64,000 nucleotides of DNA from Paenibacillus guangzhouensis. GTDB lineage: Bacteria > Bacillota > Bacilli > Paenibacillales > Paenibacillaceae. Below the pieces are notes generated by a model. It was not told the origin of the DNA, did not search any database, and saw nothing but the letters and a program-made list of their open reading frames with translations. Of this stretch, positions 3,091 through 19,491 are shown one piece after another. The translations under genes were made by a program, and so were the position numbers. The stretch covers positions 620,001-684,000 of the forward strand of contig NZ_CP045293.1 in assembly GCF_009363075.1 (NCBI RefSeq), in the 5' to 3' direction. Every line of letters begins with the position of its first letter. The first letter of the stretch is position 1.

Positions 3091-3150
3091 GAAAAATATC
3101 ATGTAACCACAAAAAATATCATTAAAACGATCTCTCTAAATTTTTATACT
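3091..3150 (+). promoter_or_regulatory. Regulon element D: two TATCAT half-sites 20 bp apart plus -10, upstream of the YesM-type kinase
   Basis: TATCAT occurs at 3097-3102 and again at 3117-3122, each in the context AAAAATATCAT. A -10 hexamer TATACT sits at 3145-3150, exactly 28 bp after the start of the second half-site. The hexamer 17 bp upstream of the -10 is TTAAAA, a poor -35, as expected for an activator-dependent promoter. The same spacing recurs at 6692, 10171 and 19432. AraC-family activators typically bind direct repeats about 20-21 bp apart. This one would autoregulate the two-component operon. Confidence 0.7.
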
Positions 3151-3272
3151 GTACTTAGCAAAATAGATCGCCCTGCTCTAGTGTTCAATTGAAGGCGATC
3201 TTCTTCGTTATATAGTTTGTTATTGAAGTAACAATGACCAGATAATAATTTGCTTCCGTATGGAGGGTGTCC

Positions 3273-5039
3273 ATGTTCAAACAAAAAGACAGAGAGATTA
3301 CGATACATTTTATTAGAACATTTGTATTGATTATCATTATTCCATTCATCTTATTTATTAATATTTTCTATAAATACTATTCCACCTCATTAATTCATAA
3401 GTCCATTGATCAAATGGATCAGCAGTTGGATGTCGCGTCTAAAAATATGAACTCTGAGCTGAAACGAGCCTCCCTTACCATCGCTACAATCGCGAATGTA
3501 AATGACCACACAATTCTAGATGCCGTCTCCGCGTGGAGCAAAAGCTCAAGCTCGGTAGAGAAAATTCAACTTGCGCGTGAAATTGACTCCTACTTAAATA
3601 TTATCTCGAATTATAGCAATGAGATCGTCAGTGTTATTTTTACACTAAAGAGTGGAGGATACTATTATTTCAAAAACCCCCCAACGATATCCGATTCTTC
3701 CATTCGCAATCTGCCATGGTATCAAGAAGCGCTGAGGAAAAGCGGTGGAGCGGCCATCATTGTTGATAGCCTGAACGGTATTACTTCAAATAAGCAGGAC
3801 ATGTTTACCTTATTGCTTCATCCGGATCAGTCGCTCGAATCAGAGATTGAGATGGTTTATTTGATTACCCACGCCTCTCTGCCAGATTACATTCATAAGA
3901 ATCCAGAAATTGAACAATTCATGATGGATCGAAATGGTCATCGAATTGTGAATCAGAACAATCATAATAAGGTAGATCCAGAAATTTTAATGGAAGTATC
4001 GAGCATGATGAAGAAACCATCTCATGATCGTGACAAGGATTATACCTTTATTAATATCAATGGCGTAAATAAGCTTATTAAGCTGTATTCGTTCGAGAAG
4101 TCAGATTGGATTATCGTTAATGTGTTGGATGAGAACATGGTTACGAGGGAAGCAAATCAATTTTTAAAGATATCTATCATCTTCATATTTTGTAGTTTTG
4201 TTTTATTTTTATTGTTTATATTTAGTTTTTTTCGAAATATACTTAGCCCGTTGCAGAACCTCATTCGAGCGATGAGAAAAGTGGAGACAGGTGATTTTAT
4301 GACGGAGGTAAAGGCAGACGGAAGAGGTGAGATTAAGCGGCTGGGTTATTCCTTCAATCGCATGGTTTCTCAGATCAGAGATCTTATGCAGGAACGTGAT
4401 TTGAAGGAACGAGCGCGCAGCCAGGCTGAAATCGAAGCTTTGCAATCACAGATTAATCCGCACTTCTTATCGAATACATTGAATTCCGTTCGGCTTATGG
4501 CCATGATTGCGAAGACAGACAATATTCGTAAAATCATTGAGAGCCTGTCAGCGCTTCTGACGCATGTATTTCGCGCGCCGAACTCGCTAGCTCCGATCGG
4601 TCAGGAGATCAAAGTACTAGAGTCCTACGTACATATTATGCAGGTTCGTTATGGAGGCAAGCTTAATATTCAATTTCATGTTGATGATACCCTTTTGAAT
4701 TACAATATGCCCAAAATGCTGCTTCAGCCGATTCTTGAAAATGCCATTTTTCATGGACTTGATCAACAAAATATGAATGAGCTTATTGAGGTGAACGCGA
4801 TTCGGCATGAGCATGGCGTATGCTTTACCATCACGGATTATGGCAAAGGAATGACAGACGAGCAAATTAGGGGATTGCTGCAGCAGGGTGAAAAATACGA
4901 GCGTGGCACTTTTAGTGGGATAGGCGTATATAACGTGTTACAACGAATCGAGCTGAATTATGGTCATCCATACGGTTTAAAAATTGATAGCAAGTTAGGT
5001 GGAGGAACTACCGTTACGATTCTGCTGCCATTGGTATGA
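3273..5039 (+). CDS. YesM-like sensor histidine kinase
   Basis: Membrane sensor kinase of 588 residues, His-kinase/LytS-YesM family. Membrane helices are at ~13-33 and ~298-320, enclosing a ~265-residue extracellular sensor region (probably Cache-like). A HAMP linker follows (~320-372), then a coiled region and the phosphoacceptor motif QINPHFLSNTLN with His397; family members usually have Tyr where this has Ser. The C-terminal ATPase domain shows the N box (LQPILENAIFHGL, ~486) and a GxG-type G2 region near the end. The frame can open at GTG 3267, but GGAGG at 3262-3266 is only correctly spaced (6 nt) for the ATG at 3273. The response regulator follows 31 bp later. In this family the kinase senses an extracellular sugar or the loaded binding protein; here the neighbours point to oligosaccharides. 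Confidence 0.92.
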   Translation: MFKQKDREITIHFIRTFVLIIIIPFILFINIFYKYYSTSLIHKSIDQMDQQLDVASKNMNSELKRASLTIATIANVNDHTILDAVSAWSKSSSSVEKIQLAREIDSYLNIISNYSNEIVSVIFTLKSGGYYYFKNPPTISDSSIRNLPWYQEALRKSGGAAIIVDSLNGITSNKQDMFTLLLHPDQSLESEIEMVYLITHASLPDYIHKNPEIEQFMMDRNGHRIVNQNNHNKVDPEILMEVSSMMKKPSHDRDKDYTFININGVNKLIKLYSFEKSDWIIVNVLDENMVTREANQFLKISIIFIFCSFVLFLLFIFSFFRNILSPLQNLIRAMRKVETGDFMTEVKADGRGEIKRLGYSFNRMVSQIRDLMQERDLKERARSQAEIEALQSQINPHFLSNTLNSVRLMAMIAKTDNIRKIIESLSALLTHVFRAPNSLAPIGQEIKVLESYVHIMQVRYGGKLNIQFHVDDTLLNYNMPKMLLQPILENAIFHGLDQQNMNELIEVNAIRHEHGVCFTITDYGKGMTDEQIRGLLQQGEKYERGTFSGIGVYNVLQRIELNYGHPYGLKIDSKLGGGTTVTILLPLV

Positions 5040-5070
5040 ACATGATCTTTTCATGGAAAGGACGAACCGT

Positions 5071-6687
5071 ATGATGAATGTGATGATCGTAGAAGACGAG
5101 ACGATTATGAGATTGGCACTATCTACGCTGATTGAATGGGAGTCGAACGGATTTCGAATTGTATATGAGGCGAGTAATGGCTATCAAGCACTTCAATATA
5201 TCAAGGAAAACCGAGAGATTGACATTGTCATTACAGATTTGAAGATGCCTGTGATGGATGGTTTAGAGCTGATTGATGAGCTTAACCAGTTGAAAGGAAC
5301 ATCTCCGCATGTCGTCATTTTAAGTGCGTATGATGACTTTGAATATGTAAGGAAGGCATTTAAGCGGGGAATTCATGACTACATTCTTAAATCGGAGATG
5401 GATCCGAATGTTGTTCTGGATCTCTTGCATCGGATCAAACACGATTGTGAAGTTGAACAGACGAAGTCAATACAATCGAGTGAAATCCGTCATGGGGAAC
5501 GGATAAGGCTGAAACAGCAGACCATTCGGGAATGGCTTGAAATTGGCGTGAATGCACCGTTCGATCCTTTGATGCTGGAGGATCTGAATATGAGGCTGGA
5601 AGGGTTCTACATGACCGTCTCCTTGATTCGAGTAGAGGGCTTTGCTGAAGTGCAGGAGCGGTATGGTTCGGCAATTGGGGAGTTTGTAAGTTCAGTAGTC
5701 AAGTCTATCGATCAGGTGCTTGCGGAGGCAGGGACTGGTGAAGTTATTAGCTGGAACACGTATGAGTACGCGGTGCTGTTATCGTTTCGAACGAGTAGTT
5801 TATTGTATGTGCGGCAGAATCTATCGCAGATCATGGATCAAATTATCTTTGTACTGAAGGAGTACATCAATATTCAAGTGACGATCGGCGTAAGCGAGTT
5901 GTGCGAAGAGCTAAAGCAACTCCCGGAATTTTATCTTCAAGCTCGAAAAAATGCTGATTTACGCTTTGTTATTAATAAGCATCGAATTATTTACCCAGAG
6001 GATGCCATACATTTCTTGAAGCAGTCGGGGGAGACCTTGATCGGGAAAGAGCAAGCCTTGCTGAATGCATTGCGAGAGGGCGATGAGCAGAAGGCGCTGC
6101 AAGAACTGGACCACATGTTTGTACGGATTAAGCGTTCGGCTTCCATGGGAAATGAGGTACTGCGTACGCGGTATATGGAGCTCTTAATGATATTGGTAAA
6201 GTTCATGTTTGATAACGGTTACGCAAATAATCACGAGCTGAATAAGATCGAGGACGTCTATCAAATGGCCTGGCAGATCGACTCAGCCGATCGTCTGCAA
6301 GCAAGGATATTAAATGTAGCTCAGCAGCTTCTTCAAGAGATCGATAAGAAGGCGGGTCAGATGAATCGGGTTGTGGCTATAGCACAAGCATATATTATGG
6401 AACATTATGATGAAGAGATTACGCTTGGGCGAGTAAGCGAGATCGTACATTTAAGTGAAAGTCATTTCAGCACATTGTTCTCGAAGGCAGTTGGAGAGAC
6501 GTTTAAGGAATTTGTTACAAAAGTGCGTATGGAAAAGGCTATGGAGAGCATGAAGAAGGAGCCTTATCTCAAGATATACGAGATTGCAGAGCGTACAGGA
6601 TATGCGAGTACGGAGCACTTTAGCCGAGTGTTTAAGAAGGCGACGGGCATGAGTCCAAATCAGTACATAAGGTCGGTTGCCAAATAG
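5071..6687 (+). CDS. YesN-like response regulator with AraC-type DNA-binding domain
   Basis: A 538-residue partner of the preceding kinase. Residues 1-120 are a receiver domain with acidic residues in IVEDE, phosphoacceptor Asp56 (ITDLKMP) and Lys107 (LKS). The middle ~300 residues are the variable region typical of long YesN-type regulators. Residues ~435-535 carry the AraC double helix-turn-helix (ITLGRVSEIVHLSESHFSTL and IYEIAERTGYASTEHFSRVF). The frame is open from 4999 but I chose ATG 5071, which has GGAAAGGA 8 nt upstream and starts right before the conserved MNVMIVEDE. It is the best candidate for binding the four repeated promoter elements in this locus. No terminator separates it from the binding-protein gene. 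Confidence 0.93.
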   Translation: MMNVMIVEDETIMRLALSTLIEWESNGFRIVYEASNGYQALQYIKENREIDIVITDLKMPVMDGLELIDELNQLKGTSPHVVILSAYDDFEYVRKAFKRGIHDYILKSEMDPNVVLDLLHRIKHDCEVEQTKSIQSSEIRHGERIRLKQQTIREWLEIGVNAPFDPLMLEDLNMRLEGFYMTVSLIRVEGFAEVQERYGSAIGEFVSSVVKSIDQVLAEAGTGEVISWNTYEYAVLLSFRTSSLLYVRQNLSQIMDQIIFVLKEYINIQVTIGVSELCEELKQLPEFYLQARKNADLRFVINKHRIIYPEDAIHFLKQSGETLIGKEQALLNALREGDEQKALQELDHMFVRIKRSASMGNEVLRTRYMELLMILVKFMFDNGYANNHELNKIEDVYQMAWQIDSADRLQARILNVAQQLLQEIDKKAGQMNRVVAIAQAYIMEHYDEEITLGRVSEIVHLSESHFSTLFSKAVGETFKEFVTKVRMEKAMESMKKEPYLKIYEIAERTGYASTEHFSRVFKKATGMSPNQYIRSVAK

Positions 6688-6691
6688 CCTA

Positions 6692-6751
6692 AAACTATAT
6701 CATGATTTCGAATGATTTATCATTCTGACCGCTTAACGGAAGGGCTATGAT
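6692..6751 (+). promoter_or_regulatory. Regulon element C upstream of the solute-binding protein gene
   Basis: TATCAT at 6698-6703 and TATCAT at 6718-6723 are exactly 20 bp apart. TATGAT at 6746-6751 is the -10, exactly 28 bp after the start of the second half-site. It aligns base for base with the element at 10171 (TATCATGA/GATCATGA, TC.AA, TCATT, TATGAT). It would start transcription about 45 bp before the start codon of the binding-protein gene. Confidence 0.7.
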
Positions 6752-6805: not shown

Positions 6806-8152
6806 ATGCAACAGGTTCGACCACGGATGACACGCATATTATGTACGCTCATGATCACAGCCTTAATGGTACCCTTATTCTCCGCATGTGGATCGAAAGA
6901 GAAATCAGACGTCGAGAAGGAGCAATCCGCTCAGCCGGCTACGCAGCAGGAGCAGAAAGTTGAAGAGAAGGAACCCGTCACGTTAAAGTTCCCGATCTGG
7001 TCCACGATTACGGAGGATTTATTCAACAAGCTGGATCTTGTAAACGAATACAAAAAGGAACATCCGAATGTCACGATTGAATTGGAGCTGTTAAAGGATA
7101 CAGAGTATGAAAATACGATGAAGATCCGGAATTCAGCGAACGAATTGCCGGATATTCTGCCTTTGAAATCGGCTTGGTTGATTAATTTCAAAGATAATAT
7201 TTTGCCGCTGGATGACTTGGATGCAGCCAAGAACAATATGTTCGCAGCTGATTTTAAGGTGAATGATCATATCTATGGTGTACCCGAAAGCCAATTCAAT
7301 GAGTTCGTATGGTATCGGAAGAGTGTGTTCCAGGAATACGGACTTGAGATTCCAAAGACTTGGGGAGAGTTCGTAACGGCTGCTAAAAAGATTAAAGACG
7401 GCGGCAAATATATTCCTATTGCGATGGGCGGAAAAGATGCATGGCCGGATTATCCTTTTAACGAATTTATGCCTTCGCTTGTAGCGGGTGATGGGGATTA
7501 CTGGTCAACAATGGCTACGATCGATGAACCGTTCACGAAAGGCCAGGCCTACTATGATGCTTATGCCAAAATCCAAGAGCTGTACGATGCAAAGGTGATG
7601 GGTCCAGATCCGCTCGGTATTGGCTTTGATCAATCCAAGTTGATGTTTGCTTCCAAGCAGGCGGCGATGATTGGGCTTGGTCAATGGTTCGGCAGCGATT
7701 TGAAATCGATGAAGGATGTAGATATGAATGATGTAGGTGCCTTCTTGTTGCCGGTTCGTGATTCCGAAAGTGATCCGTTTAATACGATTTCGATGGTCGA
7801 TACGTTCTTTACGATTCCAAAAACGTCGAAGTACCCAGAGGAAGCAAAAGAATTCATTAACTGGTTCTTCAGTGATGCATGGTATTCCAAATATTTGACC
7901 GAGGCTCAACTTCAATCGACGGTGAAGGATGTGAAGATTGATCTAGGTCCAATGTTCAAGGGTGCTTTTGACATGTCCAATCTAAATTATGTGTTGTATA
8001 AAGGCGGCAGTGAGGATTATAAGAAGATTGAATCGGCAATCAAGTTCGATGTGAAGAAAATGGGTCAGGACATGATGGCAGGCAAGGATTTCAATAAGAT
8101 GATGCAGGAAATGAATAACAGCTGGAAAAATGCCCGTTCCAAATTAAAATAA
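6806..8152 (+). CDS. ABC transporter extracellular solute-binding lipoprotein (family 1, sugar type)
   Basis: A 448-residue lipoprotein that should capture an oligosaccharide outside the membrane. The N terminus has a basic start, a hydrophobic stretch and the lipobox LFSAC with Cys28, followed by a charged, Gln/Lys/Glu-rich tether. The mature part has the family 1 binding-protein layout, including the WYRKSVFQEYGLEIPKTWGE region typical of maltose/oligosaccharide-binding proteins. The start has AGGAGG upstream (6792-6797). The two permease genes follow after a strong hairpin, which would favour excess production of the binding protein. The true ligand cannot be read from sequence; neighbouring GH2, GH43 and GH101 enzymes suggest glycan fragments. 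Confidence 0.93.
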   Translation: MQQVRPRMTRILCTLMITALMVPLFSACGSKEKSDVEKEQSAQPATQQEQKVEEKEPVTLKFPIWSTITEDLFNKLDLVNEYKKEHPNVTIELELLKDTEYENTMKIRNSANELPDILPLKSAWLINFKDNILPLDDLDAAKNNMFAADFKVNDHIYGVPESQFNEFVWYRKSVFQEYGLEIPKTWGEFVTAAKKIKDGGKYIPIAMGGKDAWPDYPFNEFMPSLVAGDGDYWSTMATIDEPFTKGQAYYDAYAKIQELYDAKVMGPDPLGIGFDQSKLMFASKQAAMIGLGQWFGSDLKSMKDVDMNDVGAFLLPVRDSESDPFNTISMVDTFFTIPKTSKYPEEAKEFINWFFSDAWYSKYLTEAQLQSTVKDVKIDLGPMFKGAFDMSNLNYVLYKGGSEDYKKIESAIKFDVKKMGQDMMAGKDFNKMMQEMNNSWKNARSKLK

Positions 8153-8177
8153 ATCTCAATTTGATAGTTGAGTAATG

Positions 8178-8217
8178 AGGAAGGTGGCTGCCATTTGGAT
8201 TAGCCACCTTCCTTATA
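8178..8217 (+). terminator. Hairpin between binding protein and permease genes (partial terminator)
   Basis: A perfect 12-bp stem, AGGAAGGTGGCT / AGCCACCTTCCT, with a 12-nt loop. It is followed by TATATA rather than a long T run, so it probably reduces rather than stops read-through, or stabilises the upstream message. Confidence 0.7.
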
Positions 8218-8239
8218 TATAAGGACTGGAGGGGTAGAA

Positions 8240-9130
8240 ATGAGAACGGTTTCTATGCAAAGAAACATACTGTTATTCAGCTTTTTGTTTGTTCCTGTAT
8301 TGCTGTTATTGATGTTCGTGCTGTACCCGTTGTTCGAACTTATTCGATTAAGTTTTACCGATTGGAATGGCATGGATGCGAAGCAAGTTTACATTGGGTT
8401 CGACAATTACATGAAGATGTTTACCGATTCATCCGATGTATGGCTGTCCCTTCGCAATAACGGATTCTATTTCCTCTTTCATTTGATTATGATTCCGCTT
8501 GAATTAGCGGTTGCGGTTGTGTTGGACAGTAAGATTCGTGCCAATAAGTTTTTTAAGACCGTCGTATTTATGCCTTACATTATCAATGGGGTAGCGATTT
8601 CGTATATGTTTGCCTTCTTTTATAGTCCTATCAATGGGGGGTTAAATGGCATTCTTGAGGTGTTGGGGCTTGAGTCGCTCATACAGAATTGGCTCACGGA
8701 TGAATCCATCGTGAACCTTAGCTTGGTGTTTGTATCGATCTGGCGATTCTCAGGGTTCCATATCATCTTATTCTTGGCGGGTTTGCAATCGATCCCTCAG
8801 GATCAATTCGAGGCAGCTAAAATCGATGGCGCGAGCAGCATCCAGAATTTCTGGTATATTATTGTTCCTGGTGTGAAAAAGGTGTTAGAGGTTCTTTTGT
8901 TCTTAAATGTCGTTGGGGCGCTGCAAGTGTTCGATATTCCATATATTATGACACAGGGCGGCCCGGGTCATGCGAGCAGTACATTCACATTATATACCTT
9001 GGAGACGGCCTTCAAATTTAATAACTTCGGTATGGCTTCCGCGATGGGGATTACGATGTTAGTTCTCATTATTGTCCTGAATAGTGTACAGAAGAGGCTG
9101 TTCAACCTGAAGGGAGTGGATGAGGAATGA
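8240..9130 (+). CDS. ABC transporter permease, MalF/UgpA-like
   Basis: A 296-residue inner-membrane permease with about six hydrophobic segments. It carries the EAA loop contacting the ATPase (EAAKIDGASSIQNFWYIIVP, ~193-212). The length and N-terminal LYPLFELIRLSFTDW are typical of the CUT1 sugar-importer family. The start has GGAGGGG 6-8 nt upstream. The stop overlaps the next permease start by 4 nt (ATGA), indicating translational coupling and a heterodimeric channel. Confidence 0.94.
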   Translation: MRTVSMQRNILLFSFLFVPVLLLLMFVLYPLFELIRLSFTDWNGMDAKQVYIGFDNYMKMFTDSSDVWLSLRNNGFYFLFHLIMIPLELAVAVVLDSKIRANKFFKTVVFMPYIINGVAISYMFAFFYSPINGGLNGILEVLGLESLIQNWLTDESIVNLSLVFVSIWRFSGFHIILFLAGLQSIPQDQFEAAKIDGASSIQNFWYIIVPGVKKVLEVLLFLNVVGALQVFDIPYIMTQGGPGHASSTFTLYTLETAFKFNNFGMASAMGITMLVLIIVLNSVQKRLFNLKGVDEE

Positions 9131-9963
9131 CGCCTCGATTGGGAGTAGCTGTGAAGAAGCTCGCCGTGTATGTTATACTCATTGCGATTTGTCTGATGAT
9201 CTTCATTCCTTTACTCATCACGTTATTCGCTTCGTTCAAAACGTCGATGGAGATTGGTTCGGAATTTTCGCTGAAGCCGCCTGGAAGTTTTGATTTCGAT
9301 AACTATAGCGTGGTATTGGAGAAAGGGAAGTTTCTGCAGGGGTTTGGGAATTCGATGTTCCTGGTTGCAGTCAGTGTCGTCATTAATGCTTTATTAGGAA
9401 CGATGACAGCCTATGCGATTAATCGATTTGATTTTCGCTTGAAGAAGATCATTCTTGGTCTCTTCGTAGCCGGAATGATCATGCCTGGTATGATTACTGA
9501 AATTTCACGGTTTACGGTCATTAAAAATCTCGGACTGTATAATACCATCTGGGCTCCGATCGTGATTTATGCAGCAGCCAATTTAGTTCAGCTCTACATT
9601 TATACACAGTTCATCAACGGGATACCGAAAGAATTGGATGAGAGTGCCATGCTCGATGGATGCTCATACTTTGCAGTCTTCAATAAAATGATTTTCCCAC
9701 TTCTGCTGCCGGCAACGGCAACACTTGGGATAATAAAAGCAGTCGATGTGATGAACGATATGTATGTTCCATACCTGTACATGCCATCAAGCACACTACG
9801 AACGTTGACGACGACCTTGATGTATTTCAGCAGTTCAAAGTTTGGGAGTTGGGACTATTTAAGTGCTGCAATTATATTGGTCATGTTGCCGACGCTTGTG
9901 ATTTACCTGCTGTTTTCAAAGTATATTTTCAAAGGAATCGTTGCAGGTGCCGTAAAAGGGTAA
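9127..9963 (+). CDS. ABC transporter permease, MalG/UgpE-like
   Basis: A 278-residue second permease of the CUT1-type importer, with about six membrane segments. The EAA-type loop is present (ELDESAMLDGCSYFAVFNKM, ~176-195). The first residue of the motif is Asp rather than the more usual Glu-Ala-Ala form, as is common in MalG-like partners. It overlaps the upstream permease by 4 nt and is followed by a terminator. No ATP-binding subunit is encoded nearby, so a shared MsmX/UgpC-type ATPase is inferred to power the importer. Confidence 0.94.
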   Translation: MTPRLGVAVKKLAVYVILIAICLMIFIPLLITLFASFKTSMEIGSEFSLKPPGSFDFDNYSVVLEKGKFLQGFGNSMFLVAVSVVINALLGTMTAYAINRFDFRLKKIILGLFVAGMIMPGMITEISRFTVIKNLGLYNTIWAPIVIYAAANLVQLYIYTQFINGIPKELDESAMLDGCSYFAVFNKMIFPLLLPATATLGIIKAVDVMNDMYVPYLYMPSSTLRTLTTTLMYFSSSKFGSWDYLSAAIILVMLPTLVIYLLFSKYIFKGIVAGAVKG

Positions 9964-10026: not shown

Positions 10027-10170
10027 ATAAAGTAAAAACGAGATACAAAAGTCTTGAAAGGATATAAACTGCATTTCAGTCCTATTTATAGAACATAGAC
10101 GCAATTTAAGGAGCATTTTGCTGAAGGTGGATATGAATTCACCTTTTTTTGTTGTTGCCGGAACGATCGG

Positions 10171-10315: not shown

Positions 10316-10388
10316 TCCAATGATTTATTCATTTATTCGCATCCTAACCTTGGAGGTGATGTCATATAAGACCTTAGTTAGATGGGCC

Positions 10389-10407: not shown

Positions 10408-10445
10408 TCAAAGCTATCGTCTATTATATTTTAAAGAGGTGTACG

Positions 10446-13400
10446 ATGAAGAGAATAACTTTATGGCTTGTCATCTTCTCCTTTATAATCGGAATGGAAA
10501 ATTCAAGTACAGCCGTTTACGCACAGCAAAGCAGTACCGTTCAGACAACGGAGCATACCAATGGCAGAACCGTTTTGAATTTCAATAGCGACTGGGGATT
10601 CTACAGAGGTGATTTAGCGGGTTCAGAGGCTATTGACTTTGATGATCAGGCATTTGCCAATGTAACGATTCCGCACACGATGAGACTGGAGAAGAAACAT
10701 GCCAATGGCGGTAAGGCCGTATATCAAGGAATTGGTTGGTACAGACGTTATTTTACGGTTGACGAGATGTACAGAGGAAATACGATCAATATTGACTATG
10801 AAGGTGTCATGACGGACAGTGACATCTATTTGAATGGAGAAAAAATATATACGCGCAATGGCGGCTATGTCGGATTTTCTATAGATATTACGGATAAGGT
10901 GAAATTTGGCGAAACCAATGTGTTAGCAGTAAGGGTATCTAGCATTGACAGTCCGGATACGCCGCCAGGAAAGCCAGTAGCTAATCTCGATTTCCATTAC
11001 TACGGCGGGATTTATAGAGATGTAACCATACGAATCACAAATCCGCTGCATATTTCAGATGCATTGCAGGCTGATACAACAGCTAGCGGCGGAGTTTTCG
11101 TGACTTATCCCGAAGTGAGCCGAGCTTCTGCCAAAGTGAATGTAAAAACCCATGTCGTTAACAAGAATAATACATCGGTAGATACGAAAGTCGTAAGTAA
11201 GATTGTAGACAAGGAAGGGAATACAGTTGCTCAGGGTGAAGCTGAAGCGGCAAGGATACCAGCAGGTGGAGATAAACAGTTTAATCAGGATTTGACGGTA
11301 ACCAATCCGAATTTATGGCATCCAGATACGCCTTATCTCTATTCTTTAGTCAGTGAAGTATACAACGGGTCAACTTTAGTCGATTCGGTTATGACAAAGA
11401 TCGGCATTAGAACGATTGCGTACAAGGCAGACGGCTTCTATATCAATGGTGAACGATTATATTTGCGCGGAGCCAATCGTCATCAAGCCTATCAGAATAT
11501 TGGAGATGCTGCCCCTAATTCAATGCAGTATCGTGATGCCATGCAAATCAAGGAAAATGGATTTAATGCGGTTCGTGCGACACATTATCCTAATGATCCG
11601 GCTTTTCTAGATGCAGCGGATGAACTAGGGTTATTGGTGATTGAATGTCAACCTGGCTGGCAGAACTTCACGAGAACGCAAAAGTTCTATGATCTCACAT
11701 TAAGAGATACACGAGAAATGATCCGACGCGACAGAAATAGACCATCCGTCATCCTATGGGAAACTTCACTGAACGAGACGGGCTACTCTGCCCAATGGGC
11801 TAAAGAAGCAACGGATATCGCTCATGCTGAATACCCTGGCAATCAGATGTATACCGCGGCTGATCATGGGCTTCAGGGATCTTACTATGATGTGAACTAC
11901 AAAGTCGTGGATACGAATTGGGATGCTAACCCTAGCAAATGGACGGATTTTGATCCCAACAAGCCATTTTTCACACGTGAATGGGGAGATTTTGAGGAAT
12001 CCAGTAAGGCGCTCAGAAAAGAAGGCGAAGGCGCAATGAATACGCAGATTTTGACGCGTCAGAGATATTTGAATGGCGATGGTTACTCGGACTGGGGCGG
12101 CCTCGATGCAAATGACCGAATAGGAGGTTACTTCTTATGGAGTTGGAATGACTACGCGCGAGGATCCACAACGAAGACCTTAGGAAGCGGAACCGTCGAT
12201 ATCGATCGATACGAAAAATATGATTACTACTGGTTGCAATCCATGCAATCGGCTAGAAATTCGGTTGTTGGTCCAATGGTGTTTATCGCAAGCACATATT
12301 CGCAGGCCTCAAGCCTAAATATCAATGTATTCAGTAACAGCGACAGTGTGAAGCTATATCAGAATAACGTATTGGTGAAAGAACTGACAAGGGAAGAGGC
12401 CCTGAACTCCGTTCCAAACATCGCAAAAAAAGGCGGCAGCCCCATTTTTACATTTACATTAGATAAGTTTGCGGCTGGTGAGCTTAGAGCCGAAGCGGTT
12501 TTAGATGGGAAAGTTGTGAAAACGCATACCGTGAGAACGCCAGGTCAAGCTGCTGGAATCGAAATTGAAGTTCGTGACAGAGGCATAACGCCAGTAGCAG
12601 ATGGTTCAGATGTCATTCCTGTATACTTCAAAGTCGTGGATGCACAGGGAATTGTCGTACCGAACTACGACGGTAAGATTCAAATTTCTGTAACAGGTGA
12701 AGGGGAACTCGTCGGCAAAAATATTGAAAGAATCGGTGTGGAAGAACAAAGTGTAGAAGGCGGTATCGGCTTTGCATTTGTAAGAACTACAGACGTTAGT
12801 GGAAATATCAATATTCATGCTGTAGCAGAAGGGCTTCAAGCGGGAGACAAGACGGTAAGTACAGTCCCTTACGAAGGAAAGTTTGCCCCTGACGGACAGC
12901 ATCGGCCATGGGTTGGCGGCGTTGAAAAGCTAGAAACGATAGAACAGACCTATAAAAATATCGCAATCGGTAAACCTGTGACAAGTTCTTCTGAACAATC
13001 GGGTAACTTTGCAAAGCATGCAGTGGATAACGACGAAGGTACAAGATGGTGTGCGAGTGGAGCATCCTTACCGCAGTGGATTCAGGTTGATTTACAGAAG
13101 AGCAGCGCTATAGCTGGGTTCCAGGTGATGTGGGAGCGAAGTACAAATGCTTACAAGTACTTTATAGAAGTGTCGGAAGATGGTGTCCAGTGGAAAAAAG
13201 TGATGGATAGAACATCCAATACGACACCTAACGGATATGAAGAAACGCAGTTGACAGAGACAAAAGGGAGATATGTCAGATTAACAATTGTGGATCGGAT
13301 TACCAATGGAGATTGGGCGTCTTTATATGAATTTAAAATCATCCCTTCGGACAATGAAGAACCAGGTGACATCATTACGGATGCGAAAATTGAAGCCATT

Positions 13401-14879
13401 ACATCATCTTCTGCAAGTGAAGCTGACAGAGGTACGGATAAGCTTAGAGATGGTATAACGACGATCGGAACAGGCTGGTTGTCTAAGGAACTCACTTTTC
13501 CACAATCCGTTACCGTCAAATTCAACAAACCTCAGTCGGTTGTTGGAAGTCGTATTTACTGGGAGAAGGACAGTAACTGGTACACGTATGATTTAGAAGT
13601 ATCTGCGGATGGTCGCATATGGCAGAAGGCACTCGATAATCGCTATGTCGGCGGACAGCACTTCACACCTGAAAAATTTGCTAAGTCATTTGACAACATC
13701 AAATATGCTCGTGTAACGATCAAGGTCATCACGGCTGGCGGCGGGTTCAGAATTGGGATGGCCGAATTGATCTTATATGGGAAAGATTATGTGGAACCAG
13801 AGAAGAATGAGTATGACTATGTTAGCGATCTGGAATGGGTGTCGGCACACAGTGATTATTATGCGGTTCTTAAGGATAAACCACAGTATGGCGGTTCGAC
13901 CCTTGACTTGAACGCTGCAGCAGGAGTTAAGACCTTTGCCAAAGGATTATCAGCAGATACAAATTCAGAAGTCGTCTACCGTGTAGACGGACGTGGGTAT
14001 ACAAGATTTCAAGCCTATATAGGAATTGACAAGAAAGCCCCTAAAATGGGTGGAGAAGCGATCTTTAAAGTGTATAAAGATAATGAACTAATCTATACAA
14101 GTCCTGTCAAGATGAGAGACGACAACTGTGAATTTATTGATCTTGATATCACAGGAGCCAAGCAGATGAAGCTTATTGCTGAATGGCACAACAATCCTGC
14201 TAATCCTGAAGCAAGGTACAATACGCATGTGGACTGGGCAGATGCCAAATTCATCTATGGCGCAGCGGTAACAACACCGTCCGGCTCCATCTCGGCGCCA
14301 GTTACAGTGACAGCTGGCCGAGCGTTCAACGTGCAAGTCGGCCTCAGCAGTGTAACGCAAGAGGTATATGCGCAGGATCTATCGGTAGATTTCGATCCGG
14401 GTACGTTCGAGTTTTTGTCTGCGAGCTCTCTCATTCCGGGGGTTAGCATCATCGATAAGAAGACGACGCCGGATGGCAAGCTGCGGTTCATCGTCGCAAG
14501 CACTGGTTCAGGCTATGCCGTAACCGGCACGAGGAATGTCCTTGAACTAACGTTCAGAGCGAAGGAAGTCGCTGAAGCGAGAGTCAATCGTGTCATCTCG
14601 CTGACGAAAGTTATGATTTCTGATGCAGAAGGTGTTGAGACGACCTTAGGAAATGCGAGCTCCACCGTACAAGTGGTGAAGGAGCAACCGCCGGTTGCAA
14701 CAGGCGATTTGAACGTCGACGGCAAAGTAACGATCGGTGACCTTGCGGTAGCTGCTGCGAACTATGGCGCAACGAAGGATAGCCCGAACTGGAGTAAGCT
14801 GCGAATGGCTGACTTTGACAACAACGGCGTCATTGATATCAGTGACTTGGCGGCGATCGCGCGGAAGATTATTCAATAA
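10446..14879 (+). CDS. Secreted modular GH2 beta-galactosidase-like enzyme with cohesin and dockerin
   Basis: A 1477-residue extracellular enzyme. Order: signal peptide (~1-26, ending AVYAQ); GH2 sugar-binding jelly roll (~40-200, ending FHYYGGIYRDV); Ig-like domain (~205-310); GH2 barrel (~310-600) with acid/base Glu in WETSLNE (~443) and nucleophile Glu in FTREWGD (~511); a linker region; two F5/8-type-C sugar-binding domains (~836-972 and ~981-1115); an NPCBM-like domain (~1118-1272); a cohesin-like domain (~1277-1415); and a type I dockerin (~1420-1477) with calcium loops DLNVDGKVTIGD and DFDNNGVIDISD. I chose ATG 10446 because it begins a proper signal peptide and has AGAGG 6 nt upstream. 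An in-frame ATG at 10359 has a Shine-Dalgarno sequence only 2 nt away and would bury the signal peptide. The GH43 gene follows 47 bp later. GH2 also includes mannosidases and glucuronidases, so specificity is open. Confidence 0.9.
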   Translation: MKRITLWLVIFSFIIGMENSSTAVYAQQSSTVQTTEHTNGRTVLNFNSDWGFYRGDLAGSEAIDFDDQAFANVTIPHTMRLEKKHANGGKAVYQGIGWYRRYFTVDEMYRGNTINIDYEGVMTDSDIYLNGEKIYTRNGGYVGFSIDITDKVKFGETNVLAVRVSSIDSPDTPPGKPVANLDFHYYGGIYRDVTIRITNPLHISDALQADTTASGGVFVTYPEVSRASAKVNVKTHVVNKNNTSVDTKVVSKIVDKEGNTVAQGEAEAARIPAGGDKQFNQDLTVTNPNLWHPDTPYLYSLVSEVYNGSTLVDSVMTKIGIRTIAYKADGFYINGERLYLRGANRHQAYQNIGDAAPNSMQYRDAMQIKENGFNAVRATHYPNDPAFLDAADELGLLVIECQPGWQNFTRTQKFYDLTLRDTREMIRRDRNRPSVILWETSLNETGYSAQWAKEATDIAHAEYPGNQMYTAADHGLQGSYYDVNYKVVDTNWDANPSKWTDFDPNKPFFTREWGDFEESSKALRKEGEGAMNTQILTRQRYLNGDGYSDWGGLDANDRIGGYFLWSWNDYARGSTTKTLGSGTVDIDRYEKYDYYWLQSMQSARNSVVGPMVFIASTYSQASSLNINVFSNSDSVKLYQNNVLVKELTREEALNSVPNIAKKGGSPIFTFTLDKFAAGELRAEAVLDGKVVKTHTVRTPGQAAGIEIEVRDRGITPVADGSDVIPVYFKVVDAQGIVVPNYDGKIQISVTGEGELVGKNIERIGVEEQSVEGGIGFAFVRTTDVSGNINIHAVAEGLQAGDKTVSTVPYEGKFAPDGQHRPWVGGVEKLETIEQTYKNIAIGKPVTSSSEQSGNFAKHAVDNDEGTRWCASGASLPQWIQVDLQKSSAIAGFQVMWERSTNAYKYFIEVSEDGVQWKKVMDRTSNTTPNGYEETQLTETKGRYVRLTIVDRITNGDWASLYEFKIIPSDNEEPGDIITDAKIEAITSSSASEADRGTDKLRDGITTIGTGWLSKELTFPQSVTVKFNKPQSVVGSRIYWEKDSNWYTYDLEVSADGRIWQKALDNRYVGGQHFTPEKFAKSFDNIKYARVTIKVITAGGGFRIGMAELILYGKDYVEPEKNEYDYVSDLEWVSAHSDYYAVLKDKPQYGGSTLDLNAAAGVKTFAKGLSADTNSEVVYRVDGRGYTRFQAYIGIDKKAPKMGGEAIFKVYKDNELIYTSPVKMRDDNCEFIDLDITGAKQMKLIAEWHNNPANPEARYNTHVDWADAKFIYGAAVTTPSGSISAPVTVTAGRAFNVQVGLSSVTQEVYAQDLSVDFDPGTFEFLSASSLIPGVSIIDKKTTPDGKLRFIVASTGSGYAVTGTRNVLELTFRAKEVAEARVNRVISLTKVMISDAEGVETTLGNASSTVQVVKEQPPVATGDLNVDGKVTIGDLAVAAANYGATKDSPNWSKLRMADFDNNGVIDISDLAAIARKIIQ
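14275..14879 (+). repeat. Cohesin-dockerin cassette, copy 1 (GH2 gene)
   Basis: The 3' ~600 bp of the GH2 gene are closely repeated at 18760-19357 and 24775-25375. Long blocks are the same apart from scattered changes, for example around TATGCGCAGGATCTATCGGT and GGAAATGCGAGCTC. Conservation here is far higher than in the upstream modules. Confidence 0.85.
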
Positions 14880-14926
14880 TGCATTAACGTTAATGTAATT
14901 ATTCCGTTTCAAGGAGGAAATTTAAT

Positions 14927-17900
14927 ATGTCTAATACAAGGCAAAGAGCAAGGAAAGCGATGATACTGGCCGTACTCATTGCATTGTTTGCCAATTTCCC
15001 AACCTATGCGAGAGCTGCAGACAATGGAAATGGTACATACACAAATCCGATCATGTGGGGGGATTATCCGGATAATGACGTGATCCGGGTGGGAGACACC
15101 TATTATATGTCATCGACGAGTATGCACCTCTTCCCCGGAAGCCCAATTATGAGTTCCAAAGATTTGGTCAATTGGAAATATGAAAGCTACGCTGTTGATA
15201 GAATGGTAGGAGACATGTACGACCTGAAGAATGGGCAGAATGCTTACGACGAAGGTCCGTGGGCAACCAGCTTAAGGTATCATAACGGTAAATTCTACTT
15301 GCTGTACAACATTAATCGAGATGCGGCATACGTAAGCATTGCCAATAGTGCACAAGGTCCGTGGACGATTTACAAGTTAGAAGATGAACTCTACGATCCC
15401 GGTCTATTTTTTGACGATAATGGTAAGGTGTACGTTGTGCATGGTCAAGGTCAACTCTACCTAAGCGAAATGAAAATTGTAAATGAAGCAACAGGTCAAC
15501 TTTCGATTATTTCTAAGAGAGCCCCCGGTGCATCAAGAAATGGAAAGATGATCTACGACTATAAGGGTGGTTATTATAACGAAGGATCACATGCTTATAA
15601 AATTGGAGAATACTATTACATCTTAAGTACGCCGACCTGGAATAAAGGCTCGAAGAAGGAAATAGCGATTCGAACAAAAGACTTGGCGAACGGCCCTTAT
15701 GAAGTAAAGGATATTATGACCAGCTTTATGAATTTTACCGGCAATGGCATACACCAGGGAGGGATTGTAGATGTTCCTCAGGGTGAAGGCAAGGAAGCAG
15801 AATGGTGGTCGGTCATATTCCAGGATCGCGGCAAGCTGGGGCGTGTTCCAACATTGCAGCCGGTGCAGTGGAAAGATGGATGGCCGTATATGGGAGAGCT
15901 GGATGGAGAAAAAGCGGTCGTTACGTTTAAGAAACCTAATATCCCAGGTTTGAGCACAACGGAACCGAAGGCACCTGCAACAACCGATGATTTCAACAGC
16001 AGCGCGTTAGGCTTGCAATGGCAGTGGAATCACAATCCTGACAATGACAAGTGGAGTCTTGCGGAAAGACCGGGATATATTAGACTTAAGACATCCAGTG
16101 TAGCCACTACGCTGGCCTATGCAAGAAATACACTGACGCAGAGAATCATTGGTCCGGATTGTATAGGAACTGTCAAGATGGACATCAGCCATATGGCTGA
16201 CGGCGATCAGGCTGGGTTGTCTGTCATCCAACGAGATTCTAATTTCATTGGCATAAAGAATGAAGATGGAAAGAAGAGAATCGTAGTGCAAGACTTATGG
16301 AACGAACAGGCATCCATTGATCTTCCCAAAAGAACTTCGAATATCTGGTTTAGAGCTGAAACTCCAAGATTTGAGTACAGAACGGAATTCTCATACAGCT
16401 TAGATGGAGCTAACTTCACTAGATTGGGCGGAAGATATGACATGCGTTATGGAACCTATGTTGGGATGAGGTTTGGTATTTTCAATTATGCAACAAAAGA
16501 CCTTGGCGGATATATTGATGTCGATTCATTTGACCTGACAACGACGGAAAACCAAGGGAATGTATTCGGGATAGATAAGAAGATGGATGCTGAACGTTAT
16601 GATGATCAAAATTATGTTACGGATAAAAATCTTACGATCAACGCAAAAACAGAGTGGACCCATGATGATGTGAACAACGGTTATGACCAAAGTATAGCGA
16701 ATATCAAGAACGGCGACTGGCTGCGTTACGATCAAGTAGATTTTGGTGATGGTGCGGCCAAATGGTTCAACGCAAGAGTAGCAAGTCATAAAACGAGCGG
16801 TACAATCGAGGTTAAGCTAGCTGATGCACAAGGCAATCCAGCTGAAACGATTGCAACACTGCAAATTCCAAATACCGGTGATTTGAATACGTATGTTAAT
16901 GCGAAGGTAGAGCTTTCAAGAAAAGTCACCGGCAAGCAAAAGATTTTTCTCGTATTTAACGGTGCGGATAAGGAAATAAGCAAGCTCAACTGGTTTATGT
17001 TCGGGTCAGGCGATTATCCAGCGATTGCAGCAGTTCCAACTCATGTTCAAGTGGGTTCAACAAAGAGCTCAACGATCGATATCGCATGGGATGCCGTATC
17101 CGGCGCATTACAGTATGATATCAAGATTAACAATAAGATCATAAGCAATGCGACAAGCTCATTTTCGGAAACAGGCTTACTTCCTGGAGCAACGTATACC
17201 GTACAGGTTCGATCCAAGAACTTTGCGGGGTTCAGTGAATGGAGTGAGGGTATAAAAATAACAACCAAAGCTGACCCGGAAATGATTCCTTCCAGTGGCA
17301 TGACGGTAACTGCTTCAAGTGAAGAAACGCAAGCCGAAGATAATAAGGCAGCAAATGTCTTAGATGGAAACTTAGATACGATCTGGCATACCAAATGGAG
17401 CGGTGGAAATACGCCTCCTCATACATTGGATTTCAACTTAGGACAGACGTATGACGTATATAAGCTGAAATATACACCAAGACAGTCCGGTGGAGATAAC
17501 GGTGTTGTAACCAAATACAACATCTACACAAGTATGGATGGAGTAAACTACACCTTGGTCAAGGAAAATGGAACATTTGTAAATGATTCCACGCCAAAGA
17601 CAGTAACATTTAGACCCACTCAGGCTCATTACCTGAGATTTGAAGTATTGGCTGGTCATAATGGCTTCGGTTCTGCTGCCGAAATGAACCTTTATCAAAA
17701 TGCAGACTCCATACCGGCCGTGTCTGGCAACAAGCCAGCTGCTGCAAGCAGTGAACAAGCAGGTTATGAAGCTTCTAAGGCTAACGATGGCGATCTAGCT
17801 ACCGCATGGAAAGCTGCAGTTCAAGATACTATGAAGACGTGGACAGTAGACTTGGAAGAAAAGTATGATTTGACAGGGATCGAGCTTGAATGGGCTACTG

Positions 17901-19357
17901 AAAACGCAAGCAAGTATAAGGTTGAAGTGTCAAGCGATAACAAGGTGTGGACGCGTGCCGTTGACAGAACGGTAGATACAGTATCCAGCAAGATTAAAAA
18001 AGACAACGTTTCAAGTAATGCAGTAAGGTATGTCAAGGTAACCTTTACGGAAGGGATCGCTACCATTGATGAAATTAGAATTCGCGGTACCAAGAGCGTA
18101 ATCATCCCGGAATCTAACAACATTGTATTAAACAAACCTGTTGTTTCTGACAGCCAGCAGAGCAGCAATCCCGCATCCGCAGGTAACGATGGGGATGAGT
18201 CGACGCGTTGGTGTGTGGCGGATGATAAGCATCCACATTACTGGCAGGTGAATCTCGGTGGAAAATATGATTTAACGGGTTCAAAGGTCATATTTGAGAA
18301 AGCCGGTAAGGCGATGATGTATAAGATTGAGGTTTCAAGTGACGCTGCAACTTGGACGACAGTGGTTGACCATATGAATAACACGAGCAACACGGAACAA
18401 GTCAGAACAGATAACTGGACGGCGAAGGGCGTAGAATATATCAAGGTCACAGTTATGGGATACCCGGATCTATGGGGAGGTTTCCGCGAGTTCGAAGCGT
18501 ACGGTGCTAAATCGCCATTAGTGGATACAATAGCGCTGAAAACAGCGATCGAAGCTGCTCAAGTCAAAGTGGATCATGCCGCCGTTGGCAATCAGCCAGG
18601 ACAATATCCGCAAGCAGCCGTTGATGCATTAAAAGCAGCGATTGCAGCAGCACAAAGCGTTGTCGGTACGGCAACCACACAAGCAGAAGTGACAGCAGCG
18701 ATCGAAGCGCTTCAAGCCGCAGTTCAAACCTTCGATAAGGCCGCAACAGCTGCATCGTCCGGCTCCATCTTGGCGCCAGCTACAGTGACAGCTGGCAAAG
18801 CGTTCAACGTGCAAGTCGGTCTCAGCGGCGTAACGCAAGGGGTTTATGCGCAGGATCTATCGGTCGAGTTCGATCCGGCTAAGCTCGAGTTCTTGTCTGC
18901 GAAATCCCTCATGCAAGGAGTTAGTATCATTGATAAGAAGACGACAGCGGATGGCAAGCTGCGGTTCATCGTCGCGAGTGTTGGTTCAGGAAACGCCGTA
19001 ACAGGTACGAAGAATGTCCTGGAACTGACGTTCAAAGCGAAGGAAGTAGCGGAAGCGGCGGTAAATAGTGTCATCTCGTTAACGAAGGTCATGATTTCGG
19101 ATGCCGAAGGAGCAGAGATGACCATCGGAAATGCGAGCTCCACCGTACAAGTGGTGAAGGAGCAGCCACCGGTTCCATCAGGCGACTTGAATGGTGACGG
19201 CAAAGTAACGATCGGTGACCTTGCAATTGCTGCTGCGAACTATGGTGCAACCAAGGATAGCCCGAACTGGAGTAAGCTGCAAATGGCTGACTTTGACAAG
19301 AATGGCGTCATTGATATCAGCGACTTGGCGGCGATTGCGCAGAAGATTATTCAATAA
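14927..19357 (+). CDS. Secreted modular GH43 glycosidase (xylosidase/arabinofuranosidase type) with cohesin and dockerin
   Basis: A 1476-residue extracellular enzyme. Order: signal peptide (~1-31, YARAA); GH43 beta-propeller (~32-340) starting NPIMWGDYPDNDVIRVGD with the catalytic Asp and general-acid Glu in YNEGSHAYKIG; beta-xylosidase C-terminal ConA-like domain (~350-540, LQWQWNHNPDNDKWSLAERP); CBM6-like (~548-695); fibronectin III (~703-783); three F5/8-type-C domains (~788-925, 930-1060, 1062-1197); a FIVAR helical domain (~1200-1275); cohesin-like (~1278-1413); and type I dockerin (~1418-1476). The start follows AAGGAGG. It is the second gene of the GH2 operon and ends in a terminator. 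The GH43 plus ConA-like pairing is typical of beta-xylosidases and arabinofuranosidases, but the actual linkage cleaved cannot be read from the sequence. Confidence 0.9.
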   Translation: MSNTRQRARKAMILAVLIALFANFPTYARAADNGNGTYTNPIMWGDYPDNDVIRVGDTYYMSSTSMHLFPGSPIMSSKDLVNWKYESYAVDRMVGDMYDLKNGQNAYDEGPWATSLRYHNGKFYLLYNINRDAAYVSIANSAQGPWTIYKLEDELYDPGLFFDDNGKVYVVHGQGQLYLSEMKIVNEATGQLSIISKRAPGASRNGKMIYDYKGGYYNEGSHAYKIGEYYYILSTPTWNKGSKKEIAIRTKDLANGPYEVKDIMTSFMNFTGNGIHQGGIVDVPQGEGKEAEWWSVIFQDRGKLGRVPTLQPVQWKDGWPYMGELDGEKAVVTFKKPNIPGLSTTEPKAPATTDDFNSSALGLQWQWNHNPDNDKWSLAERPGYIRLKTSSVATTLAYARNTLTQRIIGPDCIGTVKMDISHMADGDQAGLSVIQRDSNFIGIKNEDGKKRIVVQDLWNEQASIDLPKRTSNIWFRAETPRFEYRTEFSYSLDGANFTRLGGRYDMRYGTYVGMRFGIFNYATKDLGGYIDVDSFDLTTTENQGNVFGIDKKMDAERYDDQNYVTDKNLTINAKTEWTHDDVNNGYDQSIANIKNGDWLRYDQVDFGDGAAKWFNARVASHKTSGTIEVKLADAQGNPAETIATLQIPNTGDLNTYVNAKVELSRKVTGKQKIFLVFNGADKEISKLNWFMFGSGDYPAIAAVPTHVQVGSTKSSTIDIAWDAVSGALQYDIKINNKIISNATSSFSETGLLPGATYTVQVRSKNFAGFSEWSEGIKITTKADPEMIPSSGMTVTASSEETQAEDNKAANVLDGNLDTIWHTKWSGGNTPPHTLDFNLGQTYDVYKLKYTPRQSGGDNGVVTKYNIYTSMDGVNYTLVKENGTFVNDSTPKTVTFRPTQAHYLRFEVLAGHNGFGSAAEMNLYQNADSIPAVSGNKPAAASSEQAGYEASKANDGDLATAWKAAVQDTMKTWTVDLEEKYDLTGIELEWATENASKYKVEVSSDNKVWTRAVDRTVDTVSSKIKKDNVSSNAVRYVKVTFTEGIATIDEIRIRGTKSVIIPESNNIVLNKPVVSDSQQSSNPASAGNDGDESTRWCVADDKHPHYWQVNLGGKYDLTGSKVIFEKAGKAMMYKIEVSSDAATWTTVVDHMNNTSNTEQVRTDNWTAKGVEYIKVTVMGYPDLWGGFREFEAYGAKSPLVDTIALKTAIEAAQVKVDHAAVGNQPGQYPQAAVDALKAAIAAAQSVVGTATTQAEVTAAIEALQAAVQTFDKAATAASSGSILAPATVTAGKAFNVQVGLSGVTQGVYAQDLSVEFDPAKLEFLSAKSLMQGVSIIDKKTTADGKLRFIVASVGSGNAVTGTKNVLELTFKAKEVAEAAVNSVISLTKVMISDAEGAEMTIGNASSTVQVVKEQPPVPSGDLNGDGKVTIGDLAIAAANYGATKDSPNWSKLQMADFDKNGVIDISDLAAIAQKIIQ
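18525..18750 (+). repeat. FIVAR-domain repeat, copy 1 (GH43 gene)
   Basis: Encodes the alanine/glutamine-rich helical FIVAR domain. It is closely repeated, with near-identical stretches, at 24540-24770 in the GH101 gene (shared blocks include CAATATCCGCAAGCAGCCGT). Confidence 0.8.
18760..19357 (+). repeat. Cohesin-dockerin cassette, copy 2 (GH43 gene)
   Basis: Second copy of the ~600-bp 3' cassette. It is most like copy 3; for example the block around 18845-18905 is almost unchanged at 24861-24926. Confidence 0.85.
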
Positions 19358-19364
19358 AGAGTTG

Positions 19365-19400
19365 AGAGCAGCCTGAGGGGATCTTGGGCTGCTCTATTTT
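19365..19400 (+). terminator. Rho-independent terminator after the GH2-GH43 operon
   Basis: Stem AGAGCAGCC / GGCTGCTCT with a 13-nt loop and a T-rich tail (ATTTTC). Confidence 0.8.
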
Positions 19401-19431
19401 CAGTGCTTAAGAATCAATTTGGGCTTACCGT

Positions 19432-19491
19432 AAAATAGATCAAGAAATCAAAATTATCGTCATTAACCTCTCATTGGCGGGAGAGTAAGAT
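19432..19491 (+). promoter_or_regulatory. Regulon element B upstream of the GH101 gene
   Basis: Half-sites GATCAA (19438-19443) and CGTCAT (19458-19463) are 20 bp apart. The -10 TAAGAT (19486-19491) is 28 bp after the start of the second half-site. It shares most bases with the element at 10171 over 60 bp. The 402-bp gap 19358-19759 holds a terminator, this promoter, a cre-like site and a ~255-nt leader with no convincing gene. Confidence 0.68.

What the first reader, a model, noticed from the sequence alone, without database searches (positions are those of the whole stretch)
3091..19491. Four promoters share one precisely spaced element: an apparent autoregulated YesMN regulon
Blocks at 3091, 6692, 10171 and 19432 share the same geometry. 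Half-site 1 and half-site 2 are exactly 20 bp apart (TATCAT/TATCAT, TATCAT/TATCAT, GATCAT/CGTCAT, GATCAA/CGTCAT). A -10 hexamer (TATACT, TATGAT, TATGAT, TAAGAT) lies exactly 28 bp after the start of the second half-site in all four. All four have poor -35 regions next to half-site 2. They precede the YesM-type kinase, the binding protein, the GH2-GH43 operon and the GH101 gene, i.e. the transcription units of one functional locus. AraC-type proteins typically bind direct repeats about two helical turns apart, so the local YesN-like regulator is the prime candidate. The PocR-type AraC protein encoded beside element D is an alternative binder.
Basis: partly seen in the sequence, partly recalled or inferred. 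Interest (0 to 1): 0.85.

Follow-up and report, generated by a model that had tools for sequence, protein, structure and literature searches.

The report
Shared switch for sugar-harvesting genes
Four promoters in a soil bacterium's glycan-degradation gene cluster carry the same precisely spaced DNA element, which was found in sampled relatives only where the neighbouring YesMN sensor-regulator genes were found too, so it is very probably the landing site of that regulator; this is a well-supported new example of a known type of gene control.

Summary
Comparative genomics shows a real conserved element. A pattern built from it matches 8 of 394 family genomes (reversed-pattern control 0 in all); all 8 are among the 9 in which a close YesN orthologue was found. 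The element follows its target genes even where gene order has changed: 37 of 44 PWM sites lie within 480 bp upstream of an orthologous target, the other 7 being in one rearranged genome; the -10 is at +28 in 38 of 44. In the home genome one further strong site was found, 2.2 Mb away, before a second ABC importer. The PocR-type alternative is disfavoured, and its gene lies beside the first element, not the fourth. Best reading: a tandem AraC-type activator site overlapping the -35 region, bound by the local YesN, with an element before yesM in 7 of 9 genomes. Binding and transcription starts are untested. The kind is known (AraC-type two-component activators on tandem repeats); motif and regulon are a new member.

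The parts
3097..3122 (+). Element A, tandem half-sites (3097-3102, 3117-3122), before the YesM-type kinase gene
   Evidence: Direct reading; site upstream of YesM in 7 of 9 YesN+ genomes
3145..3150 (+). -10 hexamer TATACT of promoter A; weak -35 TTAAAA at 3122-3127 overlaps half-site 2
3267..5039 (+). YesM-type histidine kinase (HAMP, His_kinase, HATPase_c)
   Evidence: Pfam
4999..6687 (+). YesN-type response regulator (REC plus AraC-type HTH), proposed binder; most orthologues align only from residue 16-18, so the real start may be near 5047-5050
   Evidence: Pfam; orthologues; HTH 87-96% identical to that of 8 other genomes
6698..6723 (+). Element B, before the ABC solute-binding protein gene
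   Evidence: site begins 108-109 bp before the start of the SBP match in 9 of 9 SBP orthologues read
6746..6751 (+). -10 hexamer TATGAT of promoter B
6806..9963 (+). ABC importer: solute-binding protein (6806-8152) and two permeases (8240-9130, 9127-9963)
   Evidence: Pfam
10123..10146 (+). Terminator-like hairpin between the transporter operon and promoter C
   Evidence: consensus scan only; 16 found, 13.3 +/- 3.4 expected
10177..10202 (+). Element C, before the GH2-GH43 pair
10225..10230 (+). -10 hexamer TATGAT of promoter C
10320..19357 (+). GH2 (10320-14879) and GH43 (14927-19357) glycosidases, 47 bp apart, one presumed operon; GH43 has no element of its own
   Evidence: Pfam
19365..19395 (+). 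Terminator-like hairpin between GH43 and promoter D
   Evidence: consensus scan only
19438..19463 (+). Element D, before the GH101 gene
19486..19491 (+). -10 hexamer TAAGAT of promoter D; weak -35 TTAACC at 19463-19468
19754..25375 (+). GH101 endo-alpha-N-acetylgalactosaminidase with dockerin
   Evidence: Pfam
1924..2991 (-). PocR-type AraC regulator, divergent from YesM; considered and disfavoured as binder
   Evidence: Pfam; distribution

Best explanation
Each element is a tandem operator for an AraC-type activator. Two copies of a half-site (cores ATCAWG and RTCATT) lie 20 bp, about two helical turns, apart, so two regulator monomers can sit on the same face of the DNA, and the downstream copy overlaps the weak -35 region, 28 bp before a housekeeping-type -10. 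The binder is most likely the YesN-type response regulator encoded at 4999-6687. Proposed working: YesM senses an extracellular glycan signal and phosphorylates YesN; YesN occupies the repeats and recruits RNA polymerase to promoters that are poor on their own. This switches on the binding protein and permeases, the GH2, GH43 and GH101 enzymes, a remote second importer, and in most genomes yesMN itself (positive feedback). Shown here: the geometry, its conservation, its restriction in this sample to genomes where YesN was found, and its movement with transcription units. Inferred: that YesN binds it, activation rather than repression, phosphorylation, and the substrate (perhaps mucin-type O-glycan or another galactose-containing glycan).
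For: Geometry exact in 4 of 4 window sites. YesN orthologue (E <= 1e-80) in 9 of 394 family genomes; GH-type pattern with up to 3 mismatches in 8 of 394, all among those 9, reversed-pattern control 0 in all 394. The ninth, G220, has no close GH101, and its yesM and SBP promoters carry A- and B-type sites. PWM hits in the fetched loci: 44, none on the opposite strand, none inside a + strand ORF of 120 aa or more. 37 of 44 lie within 480 bp upstream of an orthologous target. The element follows transcription units: in G227 and G256 the SBP operon lies behind the GH genes and keeps its element; the permease genes carry none in the 8 genomes where one search placed them. TANNNT at +28 in 38 of 44, at most 3 of 44 at any other offset from 20 to 39. 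Self-similarity of the profile is highest at a 20-bp shift, 0.498, next 0.425 (shifts 12-29). YesN HTH is 87-96% identical, linker 77-82%, REC 85-94%. GH101 homologues occur in 24 genomes without a YesN hit, none of which has the pattern.
Against: No binding, expression or transcription-start data. Co-occurrence cannot by itself separate YesN from other products of the same locus. In the 394-genome YesN search only the 3 best first-look candidates per genome were scored, so a YesN could be missed; for G001 the absence was checked with 150 scored. The HTH is no more conserved than the REC domain. No element before yesM in G352 and G193, and the one in G194 is weak and lacks a -10. Six of 44 sites lack TANNNT at +28; two of those have it one base off. 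Some GH genes have no element of their own: GH2 in G002 and G352, GH43 in the window and G194, GH101 in G352 and a second copy in G256; most follow another gene of the set closely and may be in its operon. The genomes are related, so they are not independent trials.
Confidence: 0.87

Rival explanations
1. The same elements are bound by a different regulator that travels with the locus or is encoded elsewhere, such as the PocR-type AraC protein at 1924-2991.
For: The PocR gene is divergent from yesM and next to element A; AraC proteins commonly bind tandem sites (recalled). Genes 52-93% identical to it occur in 6 of the 9 other genomes searched.
Against: No PocR match at E <= 1e-40 in G193, G194 and G352, which have the element (in G352 150 of 201 candidates were scored), and an 81% identical one in G001, where no strong element was found; in G002 it lies on another contig. 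I did not test every transcription factor of the nine genomes.
Confidence: 0.08
2. The fifth site and its importer are controlled by the second YesMN pair (YesN2/YesM2) encoded behind that importer, and the similarity is due to a shared ancestral motif.
For: YesN2/YesM2 lie directly downstream of the importer in the home genome.
Against: In G002 (C3 copy) and G194 the importer has the element, but no YesN2 match over 40% identity was found in the 18 kb fetched. YesN does not match the fifth locus at E <= 1e-20, so the two regulators are distant. No second element over 20 bits in the 19-kb fifth locus.
Confidence: 0.1
3. The resemblance is shared descent of promoter DNA by duplication, not selection on an operator.
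For: D, the fifth site and most C-type sites of other genomes are alike well beyond the half-sites, including part of the spacer and the stretch after -10.
Against: A and B types share with C/D little beyond the half-site cores, spacing and -10, and all three types keep these positions across three genera.
Confidence: 0.04
4. An alternative sigma factor promoter rather than an activator site.
For: Fixed distance to -10 and a recurring TTAAC at the -35 position.
Against: The upstream half-site core, 20 bp further, is almost as conserved as the downstream one; -10 hexamers fit TANNNT of the housekeeping type.
Confidence: 0.03

Closest known systems
AraC-type two-component regulons of Caldicellulosiruptor bescii (PMC8579813; passages read)
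   Same: AraC-family two-component regulators beside carbohydrate transporter genes; sites predicted by comparative genomics as tandem repeats with large spacers upstream of promoter elements, hence taken as activators
   Different: Another lineage and plant polysaccharide substrates; I did not see its motif logos, and no YesN of this clade is named in the passages read
XydS/XydR of Clostridium cellulolyticum (PMC3572039; discussion part 1 and passages read)
   Same: Kinase plus AraC-type response regulator controlling a cluster of cellulosomal (xyl-doc) enzymes and one unlinked gene
   Different: Only a table of shared short sequences, no settled consensus; the authors report no autoregulation and no site upstream of xydS, whereas here a tandem site precedes yesM in 7 of 9 genomes
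Pneumococcal TCS07 (YesMN) host-glycan regulon (PMC7075642 passages; PMC11034029 section 17 and passages)
   Same: YesMN-type system controlling glycan-degrading enzymes and an ABC importer
   Different: N-glycan genes rather than GH101; its candidate motif CTWWWWWWAG-N39-60-TSS does not resemble this one
AraC/RhaS-type promoters with a site overlapping -35 (recalled, no paper read)
   Same: Tandem half-sites about two turns apart with the proximal one overlapping -35
   Different: Regulators with a ligand-binding rather than a phospho-receiver domain; different half-site sequence

Membership tests
YesMN-type two-component system (His_kinase plus AraC-type response regulator) | Kinase with PF06580 His_kinase, HATPase_c and HAMP | tested here: met
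   window 3267-5039
YesMN-type two-component system (His_kinase plus AraC-type response regulator) | Response regulator with REC and C-terminal AraC-type HTH | tested here: met
   window 4999-6687; best solved chains for the HTH are response regulators 6swi and 3lsg
YesMN-type two-component system (His_kinase plus AraC-type response regulator) | Genomic link to an ABC sugar importer and glycosidases | tested here: met
AraC-type activator operator overlapping -35 | Tandem direct repeat about two helical turns apart | tested here: met
   20 bp
AraC-type activator operator overlapping -35 | Proximal half-site at a fixed place overlapping -35, with a -10 | tested here: met
   -10 at +28 in 38 of 44 sites
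AraC-type activator operator overlapping -35 | Regulator binds it and activates transcription | not testable with these tools
   Needs footprinting and expression data
Autoregulated two-component system | Candidate own operator upstream of the kinase-regulator operon | tested here: met
   Element A; present in 7 of 9 genomes, absent in G352 and G193, weak in G194
Autoregulated two-component system | Regulator acts on its own promoter | not testable with these tools
   Needs expression data

The most novel reading that the evidence does not exclude
One YesMN system runs a split regulon: the local O-glycan-type locus, its own genes, and an importer operon 2.2 Mb away that sits next to a second, only distantly related YesMN pair, so that two sensor systems converge on one importer and couple two glycan diets.
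Probability: 0.45. Interest if true: 0.5.

Novelty: new member of a known kind. Interest (0 to 1): 0.42.

Why it matters
Paenibacillaceae genomes hold many YesMN-like regulators (199-231 first-look candidates for this YesN in each of the three genomes of the genus, most of them unscored) and, as far as I know, few have a known binding site. In ten answered searches of an open-access library I saw no paper giving this motif; I saw listings, and passages or sections of five papers. Here regulator, operator and target list can be proposed together from sequence, with a clean prediction for the home genome (five promoters) that one RNA-seq or footprinting experiment could settle. The same route could assign operators to other YesN clades.

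Tried and rejected
PocR as binder: disfavoured on distribution. RNA element: no Rfam family reaches its gathering score anywhere in the window. YesN2 as binder of the fifth site: disfavoured. The first own-genome pattern was mis-spaced by one base and returned nothing; the corrected one worked. The generic promoter scan was uninformative, 45 found against 36.8 +/- 6.0 expected. The weak own-genome pattern hit at C1:6014548 (3 mismatches) does not appear in the model search; I treat it as chance; the stretch around it was fetched but not studied. No protein was folded. Of the 113 model hits in ten genomes, the 69 weaker than E = 3.2e-7 were not followed, except that two of them are the G194 yesM site (E 0.001) and the degenerate G002 GH43 site (E 0.005) already in the PWM set. 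The model search had one YesN-negative genome only (G001).
Full report
WHAT IS THERE. The four blocks read exactly as reported. Half-site starts are 3097/3117, 6698/6718, 10177/10197 and 19438/19458, each pair 20 bp apart, and the -10 hexamers start at 3145, 6746, 10225 and 19486, each 28 bp after the second half-site. A pattern with this geometry, written from the four sites, matches these four positions on the + strand of the window and nothing on the - strand. A test that does not assume the pattern: in 330 bp upstream of each of the four genes, the best shared 29-mer star score is 64, against a mean of 52.0, standard deviation 1.2 and maximum 57 in 200 shuffles.

THE GENES. Element A precedes a YesM-type kinase gene, followed by a response regulator with an AraC-type HTH; B precedes a solute-binding protein and two permeases; C precedes GH2 and GH43, which are 47 bp apart; D precedes GH101. 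Terminator-like hairpins lie between the permeases and C and between GH43 and D (that scan finds 16 such sites where 13.3 are expected, so this is weak support). The PocR-type AraC gene at 1924-2991 is beside A, not D.

GENOME-WIDE SPECIFICITY. The window is 64 kb of a 6.95-Mb genome. A relaxed C/D-like pattern with up to 3 mismatches gives five hits and none for the reversed-pattern control: A, C, D, one strong new site at C1:2832897-2832926 (-) and one weak site; B has too many mismatches to it. A sequence-only model of 25 sites gives five hits at E <= 3.2e-7 in the own genome, then nothing until E = 0.46; in G001, a same-genus genome without a YesN hit, the best is 0.014. All five own sites were in the training set, so the information lies in the absence of others, and that is limited by the search scoring only 150 first-look candidates per genome. 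Over the ten genomes 44 hits reach E <= 3.2e-7, then there is a gap to 0.001.

COMPARATIVE FOOTPRINT. A close YesN orthologue (E <= 1e-80) was found in 9 of 394 genomes of the family (three candidates scored per genome). The GH-type pattern occurs in 8 of the same 394, all among the 9, with no control match in any. If genomes were independent the chance would be about 7e-16; they are related, so this number is only indicative. The ninth genome, G220, has no close GH101 and carries A- and B-type sites before yesM and the binding protein.

A PWM from the four window sites, iterated over the fetched loci (one locus without good hits dropped), finds 44 sites over 20 bits, none on the opposite strand, none inside a + strand ORF of 120 aa or more. 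Thirty-seven lie within 480 bp upstream of a tblastn match to YesM, the binding protein, GH2, GH43, GH101 or the remote permease. The other seven are all in G193: two lie 967 bp before GH2 on what look like two copies of one contig, and five have no target match close downstream; at one of these places a 15-residue piece matching the end of YesN is followed by a B-type and a C-type site in tandem, a rearrangement scar. Before the binding-protein gene the site starts 108-109 bp upstream in 9 of 9 orthologues read. Where order has changed the element goes with the transcription unit: in G227 and G256 the transporter lies behind the GH genes and keeps its element; in the window GH43 follows GH2 closely and has none, whereas in G227 and G002 GH43 has its own. 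TANNNT stands at +28 in 38 of 44; no other offset from 20 to 39 exceeds 3.

THE ELEMENT IN DETAIL. In 41 unique sites over 25 bits the two cores ATCA and TCATT are nearly or fully invariant, with a second conserved patch (AATC) 7 bp after the first core begins and an A-rich box just upstream. Self-similarity is highest at a 20-bp shift. The end of the second core forms a TT-starting hexamer 17 bp from the -10, so half-site 2 overlaps the -35. This is the layout expected of an AraC-type activator that contacts RNA polymerase (recalled).

WHO BINDS. YesN is favoured: the element's range matches its range, and its HTH is 87-96% identical in eight other genomes against 77-82% for the linker; the REC domain is as conserved, 85-94%, so this is not specific evidence. 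PocR is disfavoured: no match at E <= 1e-40 in three motif-bearing genomes and an 81% match in one where no strong element was found. Target-type genes alone do not bring the element: 24 genomes without a YesN hit hold a GH101 homologue (E <= 1e-120) and none has the pattern; those homologues are only 37-51% identical, so this control is loose. Five genomes without a YesN hit hold the remote importer's binding protein and none has the pattern; among YesN+ genomes three of five copies have the element. The counts are small.

THE REMOTE SITE. The fifth site precedes two permeases and a binding protein, followed in the home genome by a second YesN/YesM pair. In G002 (C3 copy) and G194 the importer has the element, but no YesN2 match over 40% identity was found in the 18 kb read. 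So the first YesN is the simpler binder, and the home importer may answer to two systems.

AGAINST. No element upstream of yesM in G352 or G193, and a weak one without -10 in G194; six of 44 sites without TANNNT at +28; nothing shown biochemically. Several GH genes have no element of their own (GH2 in G002 and G352; GH43 in the window and G194; GH101 in G352 and a second copy in G256); most follow another gene of the set closely. The substrate is a guess from GH101, a GH2 whose N-terminal 860 residues are closest to beta-galactosidases and a GH43 whose N-terminal 558 residues are closest to a bifunctional GH43-CE protein and to arabinofuranosidase or xylosidase chains.

COMPARISON. Comparative-genomic AraC-type two-component regulons with tandem-repeat sites upstream of promoters are described for Caldicellulosiruptor (PMC8579813, passages). 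XydS/R of Clostridium cellulolyticum controls linked and unlinked genes but is reported not to regulate itself (PMC3572039, discussion part 1 and passages). Pneumococcal TCS07 is a YesMN host-glycan system with a different candidate motif (PMC7075642 passages; PMC11034029 section 17 and passages). A review of hemicellulase regulation (PMC10766802, passages) does not mention YesN or Paenibacillus. The system is therefore a new, well-supported member of a known kind.

Noticed in passing
window 10320-14879, 14927-19357, 37579-40761: GH2, GH43 and GH84 proteins each carry a cohesin and a dockerin in one chain (FIVAR in GH84, below cut-off in GH43). GH2 and GH43 orthologues in G352, G227 and G194 (and GH2 in G256) align only up to about residue 1272-1357, so the cohesin-dockerin tail differs there.
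   Followed up: partly
window 37579-40761: The GH84 enzyme has the same cohesin-dockerin build as the regulon enzymes, but the PWM scan found no site over 9 bits before it.
   Followed up: partly
L032:3300-3560: In G193 a 15-residue piece matching the end of YesN is followed by a B-type and a C-type element in tandem, with a GH35 gene further on: a rearrangement scar.
   Followed up: partly
window 19450-19510 and the fifth site in L019: In most C/D-type promoters the spacer (GGCGGGAGAG) and the stretch after -10 (like GTAAACATAA) are also conserved, unlike in A and B types; reason unknown.
   Followed up: no
G000:C1:2538781-2541351: A second GH101 paralogue (40% identical) in the same genome; neither the pattern nor the model search reported an element near it.
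   Followed up: no
window 4999-5050: The listed GTG start of YesN may be too early; most orthologues align only from residue 16-18.
   Followed up: no
window 28652-33493: A 1613-aa protein with three S-layer homology stretches and no other Pfam match at E <= 0.001.
   Followed up: no
G193:C34:168093-168154: A further GH-type site with a degenerate first half-site, found by the model (E 1.1e-8) but under the PWM threshold; its gene was not identified.
   Followed up: partly
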